32,911 nucleotides of DNA from Chthonomonadaceae bacterium (GTDB lineage Bacteria; Armatimonadota; Fimbriimonadia; Fimbriimonadales; Fimbriimonadaceae), in contig JAEURO010000005.1 in assembly GCA_016788345.1 (NCBI GenBank), positions 1 to 32,911 on the forward strand, given 5' to 3'. The notes under the pieces were generated by a model. The model did no database searches, had not been told where the DNA came from, and saw only the letters and a program-made list of their open reading frames with translations. Numbering within the stretch: position 1 is the stretch's first letter; each line of letters starts with the position of its first letter. Below are positions 28,457 to 32,911 of the stretch, in pieces. Both the position numbers and the translations under genes were made by a program.

Positions 28457-28540
28457 TTATGACGCCCCGCGTTCTAAATCTGAGGCCAATAGACTCTTCA
28501 AATACCGCCCTGTCCAGCTCTCCTCCACCTTCGCCACGTC
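28457..28540 (-). pseudogene. uvrA: Detached 3' end of uvrA (second copy)
   Basis: Read on the minus strand, 28540-28457 encodes [15 protein letters not shown], then SLLASDLERGAS and a TAA stop. The first 15 residues are identical to the C-terminus of the uvrA fragment at 30681-31682, but the tail differs. Upstream of the Asp codon the homology ends at once (an in-frame TAG precedes it), so only this end survives. It is likely the original end of uvrA, displaced when the intervening cassette arrived. Confidence 0.75.
28497..28540. repeat. Direct repeat copy A (uvrA 3' end)
   Basis: This is a 44-bp copy of the sequence at 30697-30740, same orientation, with one mismatch (C at 28535, A at 30735). 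The difference is silent in the uvrA frame. The two copies lie exactly 2,200 bp apart and flank three accessory genes. Confidence 0.9.
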
Positions 28541-29987: not shown

Positions 29988-30684
29988 GATTAACATATTC
30001 AGTTTGTTTCTTTGTATTGAATTGACGAAGGCAAGAATCAAGAATTGTTGTAAGGGTATTAGGATTCTCGGATTGAAAGGATTCGATTCTGTCACAAAGA
30101 AGTGCGCAGGTGAATTCTCTTACGAAAGTCTTAGCTTTGGAGGCACCAAAATTTGTTAAGTCAATACTTGTTCCGCCGAATGTAAAAGTCCTGTTGTAAA
30201 GGTTGCCAAGGTCGTATCGATTATCCAAACAATCTATTCGAGATCCGCCTTGCAGTCTCTCCTCGAAGTGTGCCAAATGGTCGCGCATGTCTTTGATAGG
30301 TTTGAAATAGCCTTGCCACGACTGAATGACCTCCATTGTCCGTTTGCCGCCCGCTTGCTTCTGAATCCACTTTGCGAGTGACCCCACACGATGTATGGCC
30401 TCCAGCATAAAGTGAATATCGATGAAGATGGGACACGGGCTCGTCCCGATGGAATTTGACACGCGTTTCATTTGCCGCAAGACTCTGTTCCATTGTCTCG
30501 AAGCAGCTTCTGAATAGTTATTTAGAGAACGGAGTGCCACATATGCCCCTGAATCCGCTTCAAGTAGCCAGAATGTGTCTATGGACCGTAACTGCTCCTT
30601 TGACCAGCCGTCCAAGGCCCGTGGAATGGTCGATCCAGTTGCCGTTTGCTTTGTTGATTGCCTACGATTGGTCCCTCCTTTCAC
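29962..30684 (-). CDS. Unknown accessory protein with an RxxxxH motif
   Basis: This is a 240-residue, AT-rich, mostly helical protein that I do not recognise. The helix [15 protein letters not shown] carries R-x4-H, the kind of motif found at the active site of HEPN RNases, and a long preceding helix has [11 protein letters not shown]. That makes a HEPN-like fold possible but unproven. The GTG at 30684 overlaps the uvrA-fragment stop (GTGA) with AAGGA upstream, so translation would be coupled to the uvrA tail. The frame is open further to 30810, but that part is only the shadow of uvrA in another frame. It is the first gene inside the repeat-flanked segment. Confidence 0.62.
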
Positions 30685-31682
30685 ACCAACATTCCTTTCA
30701 AATACCGCCCTGTCCAGCTCTCCTCCACCTTCGCAACGTCTTCCGGCGTCCCCGTCGCCACGACCTGCCCGCCTCCCGTCCCGCCCTCCGGGCCGAGGTC
30801 GATCACCCAATCGGCGGTCTTGATCACGTCCAGGTTGTGCTCGATCACCAGCACGGTGTTACCCTGGTCCACCAAACGGTGCAAAACCGTCAACAACCGC
30901 CGCACGTCCTCGAAATGTAACCCAGTGGTGGGCTCGTCCAGAATATAGATCGTTCGCCCGGTGGACCGCTTGGAGAGCTCCTCGGCCAGTTTCACCCTCT
31001 GCGCCTCGCCCCCAGACAAAGTCGTCGCTGGCTGCCCCATGCGGATGTAGCCCAAGCCGACATCGAGCAACGTCGCCAGCTTGCGGTGGATCTTGGGGAT
31101 CGGCTGGAAGAAGTCGCAGGCCTCCTCGATAGTCATCTCGAGCACGTCTGCGATGTTTTTGCCTTTGTAGCGCACCTCCAGCGTCTCGCGGTTGTAGCGC
31201 TTGCCCTTGCAGACCTCGCACGGCACCTAGACGTCGGGCAGAAAGTGCATCTCGATCTTGATGATCCCGTCGCCCTTGCAGGCCTCGCACCGCCCGCCCT
31301 TCACGTTGAAGCTGAAGCGCCCGTTCTTGTAGCCCTTGATCTTGGAGTCCGGCGTCTTGGCGAAGAGCTCGCGGATCATGTCGAAGGTGCCTGTGTAGGT
31401 GGCGGGGTTGCTCCGCGGGGTGCGACCGATAGGTGACTGGTCGATGTCGATCACCTTGTCCAGCTGCTCGTGGCCGGTCAATGAGTCGTGGTCGGCCCAG
31501 ACCCCGCGCGTGCCATAGGTCTCGTACATCAGGCGGGGGAACAGGGTGTCCTGTACGAGGGTGCTCTTCCCGCTCCCGCTGACACCGGTGACGCAGACGA
31601 ACAACCCCAGCGGCACCGCCACATCCACCCCGCGCAGGTTGTTCCCTGTCGCGTTCTTCAGCACCAGCCAGCCGTCGGACAT
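30681..31682 (-). pseudogene. uvrA: uvrA C-terminal fragment with in-frame amber codon
   Basis: UvrA is the DNA-damage sensor of nucleotide excision repair. Only the second ABC half is here: Walker [14 protein letters not shown], the zinc-finger part [15 protein letters not shown] and [16 protein letters not shown], signature [17 protein letters not shown], Walker [15 protein letters not shown]-loop [15 protein letters not shown], and the end [11 protein letters not shown]. The family has FLPDVYVPCEVC, but codon 31227-31229 is TAG in place of the Tyr. About 600 N-terminal residues are absent; upstream lies a truncated hydroxypyruvate isomerase. The fragment is clearly GC-rich (31261-31320 has 40 G/C of 60). 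A functional uvrA must be elsewhere. Homology may start up to 20 bases before 31682. Confidence 0.88.
30697..30740. repeat. Direct repeat copy B (uvrA 3' end)
   Basis: Partner of 28497-28540, inside the uvrA fragment and coding for its last 15 shared residues. The sequences diverge immediately on both sides. Confidence 0.9.
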
Positions 31683-31706: not shown

Positions 31707-32081
31707 TCAGGCGGTGCAAGGCGGCTGGCCCTTGCCGGAGAAGACTGTGCGGCCAGGTTGATGTATCGTGCGGCCTGGCCCCGCGCCGTCAGGGATCGTG
31801 GTGATGCCCAGCGCCATCGTGCAGATGAGGCCGTGCTTCTTGACGGTCGCGAACTCGTCCTCTTTGAGCAGGTCGATCCCCACCAGCCCCATGTCCTTGC
31901 CCGCGACGCAGAGGTCGTCGAGTGCAATGCCCCCAAAGCACCAGCGACAGACCGACTGCTTGAGGCTCGCCTTTGGCTTTTCCTGGCTCATTTTTGGCAG
32001 TTTGGCCCCTGTTGCCACCGCACCAGCCGCCCCGGCGGCCAGGGCCAACGCCTTCCGGCGGGAGATTGTGGTGTCGCTCAT
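31707..32081 (-). pseudogene. Truncated hydroxypyruvate isomerase family gene
   Basis: The first about 99 residues look like a Tat-exported hydroxypyruvate isomerase/TIM-barrel protein: twin-arginine signal SRRKALALAAGAAGAVATGA, then LKQSVCRWCFGGIALDDLC, KDMGLVGIDLL and VKKHGLICTMALGITTIPDG. The rest of the barrel, about two thirds, is missing. After about 31785 the frame continues as a Gly/Pro-rich tail without family likeness and stops at 31707. The break lies next to the start of the uvrA fragment and shares its reading frame, so one rearrangement probably joined the two. Confidence 0.72.
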
Positions 32082-32133: not shown

Positions 32134-32370
32134 ATGCGGCCGGGACGTAAGATCGTTAACCCAACGGGGGATCGGCGTGCCGTGGTGTATGCCCACGAGA
32201 AAGGTTTCTTCTCGTTTGAGGGAGAGTTTTGGGACGCGGAAGAAGAGTGTTGGATACCGAGCTCGACTGTGGGTTTCCCGATGTGCGACACAATGGAGAC
32301 TGCTCTTGTTGAGGCTATTGATCGAATCCCATGGCTCACCGAGGAGCTAGCATTTGCGAGCGGCTCTTAG
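32134..32370 (+). CDS. Small hypothetical protein
   Basis: This 78-residue protein is not recognised. It has GRKIVNPTGDRRAVVYAHEKG, then FSFEGEFWDAEEECW, and ends in an acidic helix (ETALVEAIDRIPWLTEEL). It is soluble, without a signal peptide. The length and a short antiparallel pattern suggest a small regulatory or immunity-type protein, but this is a guess. The ATG at 32134 follows a perfect -10 box. The frame is open far upstream (to 31768), but that part lies antisense to the hydroxypyruvate isomerase remnant. A 5-bp hairpin begins at its stop codon. Confidence 0.6.
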   Translation: MRPGRKIVNPTGDRRAVVYAHEKGFFSFEGEFWDAEEECWIPSSTVGFPMCDTMETALVEAIDRIPWLTEELAFASGS

Positions 32371-32619
32371 GAACTTGGGCGTTCCATCGGAACCGGGGTG
32401 CAAAAGTCATCACCCCGGCCATGTATGGTCGTGGAGTGCACTAGAATTGTGCATGTCGGTAGGCGGGGAGCCTCCCCGGCCATTCTGCTTTGACAGACCG
32501 CGCGTGCGTTGCTCCCGCCACCTTCGAAGTGCGACGATGAGGAATGCCGCGGCTCAGACCGCCGATGCTCTGCATGGTCTCGCCTGAAGGAGGCTTGCCG
32601 GCGCAGAAGGAAGCAGAGC
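32371..32619 (+). ncRNA. Hairpin-rich IS110 leader, candidate bridge RNA
   Basis: About 250 bases without a gene, upstream of an IS110 transposase. Stems seen: 32370-32374/32381-32385; 32393-32400 with 32411-32418 (8 bp, CCGGGGTG); 32464-32469 with 32473-32478 (CGGGGA); 32549-32552 with 32559-32562. IS110-group elements encode a bridge RNA in the left end, before the transposase. Whether this one does, and where the element begins, cannot be decided here. Confidence 0.35.
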
Positions 32620-32621
32620 AT
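32565..32621. repeat. Inverted repeat enclosing the transposase RBS
   Basis: ATGCTCTGC (32565-32573) is the exact complement of GCAGAGCAT (32613-32621), which includes the first two bases of the transposase ATG. Folding would bury the GAAGGA ribosome site and the start codon. Confidence 0.5.
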
Positions 32622-32911
32622 GAGATGTGTTGGAATCGATGTGTCGAAGGGAGCGCTGGCGTGCGCGTTCCAAGGCCAGGTGAAGGAGTTTCCCAACTCC
32701 GTGAAAGGCCTCAAGGAGCTAGAAGGCTGGGCCCGGGAGGCGGGAGCTTGGTGTTTGGAGCCCACTGGCCGCTACCACGAGCTGGCCGCGGACTATGCCC
32801 ATGAGGCCGGGAAAGCCTGTTTTGTCGTGAACCCGGCCAGGGCAAAGAAGTATCTTGGGTTCGTGGACGGTCGAGCGAAGACGGACAAGGTCGACGCGCT
32901 CGCGCTTCAGC
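32620..32911 (+). CDS. IS110-family transposase, 3' end beyond window
   Basis: This is the N-terminal 97 residues of a DEDD transposase/recombinase of the IS110 family. The RuvC-like catalytic acids are visible: GIDVSK (Asp7), LEPTGRYHE (Glu48) and GRAKTDKVDA (Asp89, Asp92). The conserved VVNPARAKKY precedes the last motif. The ATG at 32620 has GAAGGA seven bases upstream. The window ends inside the gene. IS110 elements lack terminal inverted repeats and use an RNA guide. The element lies next to the broken hydroxypyruvate isomerase and uvrA fragments, so it may have taken part in that rearrangement. The catalytic C-terminal serine domain is outside the window. Confidence 0.92.
   Translation, partial: MRCVGIDVSKGALACAFQGQVKEFPNSVKGLKELEGWAREAGAWCLEPTGRYHELAADYAHEAGKACFVVNPARAKKYLGFVDGRAKTDKVDALALQ

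What the first reader, a model, noticed from the sequence alone, without database searches (positions are those of the whole stretch)
32371..32911. IS110 transposase with a structured leader that may encode a bridge RNA
IS110-group recombinases use a bridge RNA, encoded in the non-coding left end, to pair with target and donor DNA. The 250-base leader here contains at least four stems and a 9-bp inverted repeat that encloses the ribosome site. A new ortholog may show a different target.
Basis: partly seen in the sequence, partly recalled or inferred. Interest (0 to 1): 0.52.

Follow-up and report, generated by a model that had tools for sequence, protein, structure and literature searches.

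The report
IS110 element whose RNA targets repeats
The end of this contig holds the left half of a mobile DNA element whose leader encodes a guide RNA that matches a short palindromic repeat of the host genome; the kind of system is known, but its two-letter crossover site (CA instead of the usual CT) is unusual.

Summary
The finding is real. The window ends, at a contig break, inside an IS110-group element. The element starts at 32422, not 32371; bases before that are host DNA and include the target, a REP-like repeat. Three right ends of the same element elsewhere in this genome fix the other terminus (...CATAGAAT|CACGC). The 198-base leader has the anatomy of a bridge RNA: 5' stem-loop, target loop (left guide CCCCGGCCA at 32474, right guide GCGCGTG at 32500) and donor loop (32521-32590). 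The guides match the left flank, two of three right flanks in full, and the repeat. Over 13 elements (window plus 12 relatives), own guide/flank pairs beat swapped ones (0 of 200,000 permutations as good). A covariance model of the donor loop built without the window finds it and nothing else in 33 kb (42.5 bits). The layout is IS110 type, not IS1111 type. The 'structured' impression itself is weak: folding energy is no better than shuffles and the 9-bp inverted repeat is near chance level. The unusual part is the core: CA at the left end and all three right ends, where relatives have CT and a published structure paper calls the T almost invariant. Three of the four guides carry the change.

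The parts
32389..32421 (+). REP-like host repeat used as target: hairpin CCGGGGTG...CACCCCGG, left target plus core CCCCGGC-CA at 32413-32421
   Evidence: 33-base matches of 94% and 88% in contig C118; 22 pattern places in the genome against 2 for the reversed control; continuation CACGCG in most empty copies
32420..32421 (+). core dinucleotide CA at the left end
   Evidence: same CA after TAGAAT at three right ends; relatives have CT
32422..32619 (+). left end (LE) of the element, 198 bases, encoding the bridge RNA
   Evidence: starts TGTATGG like relatives; guide and covariation tests
32424..32429 (+). TATGGT, proposed -10 of the promoter formed at the circle junction (the -35 TTGACA lies in the right end on contig C15)
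   Evidence: 18-base spacing at the joined right end/left end, also in 3 of the 5 relatives listed and 17 in one more; inference
32436..32454 (+). 5' stem-loop GTGCAC...GTGCAT
   Evidence: predicted fold
32462..32519 (+). target-binding loop: basal stem GGCGGGGAGC (32462-32471) with GCTCCCGCC (32511-32519), apical stem 32484-32487 with 32494-32497
   Evidence: stem and hairpin around the guides, p 0.08 and 0.05 for the window alone, same layout in 8 relatives
32474..32482 (+). left target guide CCCCGGCCA
   Evidence: 9 of 9 identical to the left flank plus core; 0 of 18 foreign left targets score as high
32500..32506 (+). right target guide GCGCGTG
   Evidence: 7 of 7 complementary to CACGCGC, the core and right flank at 2 of 3 right ends (the third, CACGCCA, matches in 5)
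32521..32590 (+). donor-binding loop
   Evidence: 42.5 bits, E 4.5e-7, only match in the window to a covariance model built from 6 relatives; covariation
32536..32545 (+). left donor guide GATGAGGAAT (weak: pairs GAAT of the right end plus wobbles; core positions do not pair)
   Evidence: aligned with donor guides of relatives, conserved in L162 and L166
32572..32576 (+). right donor guide (G)CATG, pairs with core CA plus TG(T) of the left end
   Evidence: position of (G)CAAG in relatives with CT core
32620..32911 (+). IS110 recombinase, N-terminal 97 residues, cut by the contig end; DEDD motif residues in sight
   Evidence: PF01548; the C-terminal half is on contig C15

Best explanation
This is the left part of an IS110-group insertion sequence, with at least three right ends in this genome. 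Its leader is transcribed into a bridge RNA, most likely from a promoter that exists only when the excised circle joins the right end (TTGACA) to the left end (TATGGT). The RNA's target loop pairs with both strands of a REP-like repeat of the host (CCCCGGC-CA-CGCGC). Its donor loop pairs with the element's own junction (CATAGAAT-CA-TGTATGG). The recombinase then exchanges strands at the shared core, here CA instead of CT. Shown here: the ends, the guide matches, the covariation and the core. Inferred: transcription, pairing and recombination in the cell, and that the C15 half belongs to the same kind of element.
For: Recombinase domains. Three right ends that part company after CACGC. Left flank is a host repeat. 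Left guide 9 of 9, right guide 7 of 7; both together in 0 of 50,000 shuffles. Swap tests: 0 of 20,000, 11 of 362,880, 0 of 200,000. Donor loop: 98% of cells paired, covariation score above all 500 shuffles; model without the window finds it. Junction promoter spacing.
Against: Folding energy is ordinary. The left donor guide pairs poorly and its core positions do not pair with CA. The stems of the window's target loop are individually marginal. The copy in the window has no known right flank of its own. No RNA or activity data. Rfam has no match. In one search own pair was not best in 3 of 13 elements (none of them the window).
Confidence: 0.93

Rival explanations
1. The leader is only a 5' untranslated region that controls translation of the recombinase, for instance through the 9-bp inverted repeat that covers the start codon; the guide matches are coincidence.
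For: The inverted repeat is real and its right arm reaches into the start codon.
Against: 84 of 1000 shuffles hold one as long, and relatives lack it. Guide matches are far beyond chance over 13 elements.
Confidence: 0.03
2. An IS1111-type element whose RNA lies downstream of the gene.
For: None found; only that both groups share the recombinase superfamily.
Against: The three right ends stop 3 bases after the stop codon, leaving no room for an RNA. No inverted match of 8 bases or more between leader and right-end region.
Confidence: 0.01
3. A bridge-RNA element that is now dead: the CA core and poor left donor guide are decay, and the copies are remnants.
For: Left donor guide does not match the core. 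Only one left end is found for three right ends, though assembly gaps explain that as well.
Against: The three right ends are nearly identical (100% over 77 bases, 93% over 66 to 67 including flank), the 97 and 184 residues are open, and CA is matched by three guides and by the target repeat.
Confidence: 0.15

Closest known systems
IS621 and its bridge RNA (IS110 group; Durrant et al. 2024, PMC11208160, and Hiraizumi et al. 2024, PMC11208158; passages read)
   Same: RNA in a long left end, 5' stem-loop plus target loop plus donor loop, left and right guides on opposite sides of each loop, junction promoter, REP as target, same recombinase domains, short ATA/TAT pair flanking the donor.
   Different: Core CA here, CT there; 7-base right target guide here, 4 there; different target; different host.
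   Same: Same ends (TGTATG..., TAGAAT or AGTAT) where both are visible; alignable donor loop; same layout.
   Different: Right core CT in every one of these; proteins at most about 50% identical over the stretches aligned; each has its own target.
IS1111-group elements with seekRNA (Siddiquee et al. 2024, PMC11187229; passages read)
   Same: DEDD recombinase guided by an RNA from the element's non-coding end; some aim at REP sequences (ISPa11).
   Different: Their RNA lies downstream of the gene and they have longer subterminal inverted repeats.

Membership tests
[quoted passage not shown]
   46.1 bits over 92 residues, cut by the contig end; acidic motif residues D7, E47 and the DKVDA motif
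IS110 group with bridge RNA | C-terminal PF02371 domain with conserved serine | tested here: met
   On C15, 86.5 bits, serine in the DSG motif (which serine is catalytic is recalled); that C15 carries the same kind of element is inferred
IS110 group with bridge RNA | Left non-coding end longer than the right one | tested here: met
   198 bases on the left, 3 on the right
IS110 group with bridge RNA | RNA with target and donor loops in the left end | tested here: met
   transcription not testable
IS110 group with bridge RNA | Core dinucleotide contained in all four guide pairings | tested here: inconclusive
   CA pairs in left target, right target and right donor guides; not in the left donor guide
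IS110 group with bridge RNA | CT core (second base almost invariant T, PMC11208158) | tested here: not met
   CA at one left and three right ends. The paper says 'almost', so this is a preference rather than a strict criterion
IS110 group with bridge RNA | RNA-guided recombination activity | not testable with these tools
   needs an assay
IS1111 group | Long right end carrying the RNA | tested here: not met
   right end stops 3 bases after the stop codon in all three copies
IS1111 group | Subterminal inverted repeats of 7-17 bp | tested here: not met
   no inverted match of 8 bases or more between leader and right-end region of C15; a 7-base one was not looked for

The most novel reading that the evidence does not exclude
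A natural bridge-RNA recombinase that works at a CA core: the second core base, called almost invariant T in the structure paper, is A at both ends of the element and in the target repeat, and the left target, right target and right donor guides have changed with it, with a 7-base right target guide that may compensate.
Probability: 0.5. Interest if true: 0.6.

Novelty: new member of a known kind. Interest (0 to 1): 0.42.

Why it matters
Bridge recombinases are being developed as programmable tools for DNA rearrangement, and their CT core limits which sites can be used. A natural element that has settled on CA, with most guides changed to match, would show that the T can be replaced and suggest how. 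It is also one more independent case of an IS110 element that aims at the host's own REP-like repeats.

Tried and rejected
Rfam gave no bridge RNA match for the window (2 tRNAs at gathering score; three chance-level hits in the leader) or for 8 relatives. Minimum-energy folding gave no signal. A five-sequence whole-leader alignment was not usable as a whole (I had cut two of its rows so that they included flank). A pattern search for further left ends found only two other places, each with 2 mismatches, taken as chance (my own estimate is that about one is expected). The idea that the inverted repeat hides the start codon was dropped. That the proline after the motif glutamate explains the CA core was dropped: L052 and L065 also read EPTG and L052 has a CT core.

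Rows dropped or against: 15 of the 17 loci with a left-end motif among the 73 rows were used (L059 and L109 left out; L109 is the same element as L140), plus the window, L139, L140 and L144. Loci without the motif were dropped, so the test covers only elements with this kind of end. Of those 19, 9 had no foreign left target scoring as high as their own (the window among them) and 10 had between 2 and 18. In one search, right guides of L144, L066 and L067 were matched or beaten by 1, 3 and 6 of 8 foreign targets. In one search, L067, L163 and L165 were matched or beaten by 1, 4 and 10 of 12; L141, L164 and L166 were left out because I could not see their left end. Picking the best match favours guides that fit the core, in the window and in relatives alike. 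Model R1 missed L142, L143, L144, L163, L165, L066 and L067.

Full report
What is there. The window is one whole contig (C273) of a 317-contig genome and stops at 32911, inside an IS110 recombinase gene. Residues 1-97 match PF01548 (46.1 bits). A PF02371 half occurs once in the genome, at the start of contig C15. Relatives L054 and L056 put it about 26 residues after the window's last one. Both contigs therefore look like pieces of one kind of element, broken by the assembly.

The ends. A search with the C15 right end found three copies: C15 start, C128 end and C15 end. All read GACAAGAAACCATAGAAT followed by CACGCCACCC, CACGCGCCCATCC or CACGCGCCCTGG. The element therefore ends at TAGAAT, overlapping its TAG stop codon, and the shared CACGC beyond it is core and target. 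Relatives show the same border, TAGAAT or AGTAT before CT. On the left the element begins TGTATGG, as relatives do, at 32422, preceded by GGCCA. CA is the sequence shared by both borders and is therefore the core. Because several copies exist, the window's left end cannot be paired with one particular right end, but all three right flanks begin CACGC.

The target. Bases 32389-32421 match two places in C118 (94% and 88% over 33 bases). The repeat is palindromic and mostly continues CACGCG where no element is present. A pattern for it occurs at 22 places in the genome against 2 for the reversed control; the 22 include the window's own two and weak matches with 2 mismatches. I call it REP-like from its form; no REP model was tested.

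The guides. The leader holds CCCCGGCCA (32474-32482), identical to left target plus core, and 17 bases further GCGCGTG (32500-32506), the complement of core plus right target. In 50,000 dinucleotide shuffles of the leader the left guide arose 50 times and both together never. I saw the matches by eye first, so the stronger test is the swap of targets between elements. Left targets over 19 elements: own matches sum to 287 against a permutation mean of 250, none of 20,000 as good. Right targets over 9 elements: 116 against 94, 11 of 362,880 as good. Jointly over 13 elements: 368 against 306, none of 200,000. The own pair was best in 10 of 13; the exceptions were L067, L163 and L165. The elements are not all independent (L066 and L067 are 78% identical).

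The structure. In the 9 elements tested a stem can close around the two target guides and a hairpin sits between them; for the window alone this is marginal (p 0.08 and 0.05). The donor loop is better supported. Seven sequences align, 98% of cells pair, four of seven pairs have changes on both sides, and the covariation score exceeds all 500 shuffles and all slid versions. I chose that structure from the alignment itself, which favours it. An independent check: a covariance model built from the six relatives alone found the window at 32521-32590 with 42.5 bits and nothing else in 33 kb.

The core. The window's element has CA at the left end and at three right ends. The right core is CT in L139, L140, L142, L143, L144, L052, L066, L067, L161, L162 and L166; L139 has AT on the left. 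Best right target guides end in AG in the 8 relatives and in TG here. The right donor guide reads CAAG in 4 of the 6 relatives and CATG here. The left donor guide GATGAGGAAT is shared with L162 and L166, but its core positions (GC) do not pair with CA. Hiraizumi et al. state that the second T is almost invariant (passage). Durrant et al. tested AT, GT and TT cores and improved non-CT cores by lengthening right target pairing from 4 to 7 bp (passage); the natural 7-base guide here fits that. Searches listed nothing titled on natural CA cores, and the term 'CA core' is absent from PMC11208160. I read passages of three papers only, so this is not proof of absence.

Expression. At the circle junction, TTGACA of the right end would lie 18 bases before TATGGT of the left end. 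A scan of 32300-32911 found no sigma-70-like promoter in the linear form. This agrees with the junction promoter described for IS110 elements (passage).

Verdict. It is a new and well-supported member of a known kind with one unusual feature, the CA core.

Noticed in passing
window 30681-31682, - strand: Two adjoining frames match the C-terminal part of UvrA (profile positions 614-760 and 763-941 of 943), separated by one in-frame TAG; the N-terminal part is not in these frames. A truncated or broken uvrA-like gene, or a sequence error.
   Followed up: partly
window 31747-31778: Another copy of the REP-like repeat, upstream of the element. In C118, C51 and C302 copies occur as inverted pairs about 100 to 230 bases apart.
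   Followed up: partly
window 28486-28540 and 30686-30740: A 55-base direct repeat, 89% identical, 2200 bases apart; the second copy overlaps the end of the UvrA-like frame.
   Followed up: no
L137 (contig C15, 3000-8882) and L071 (contig C15, 1-3000): Contig C15 is bounded at both ends by right ends of the element in opposite orientation, so it lies between two inverted copies.
   Followed up: no
L142 (genome G104), right flank of its IS110 element: The downstream flank repeats the left target followed by the right target (CTCACCCCCTGCCCCCTCTCCATCGG), which looks like an unoccupied copy of that element's target next to the insertion.
   Followed up: no
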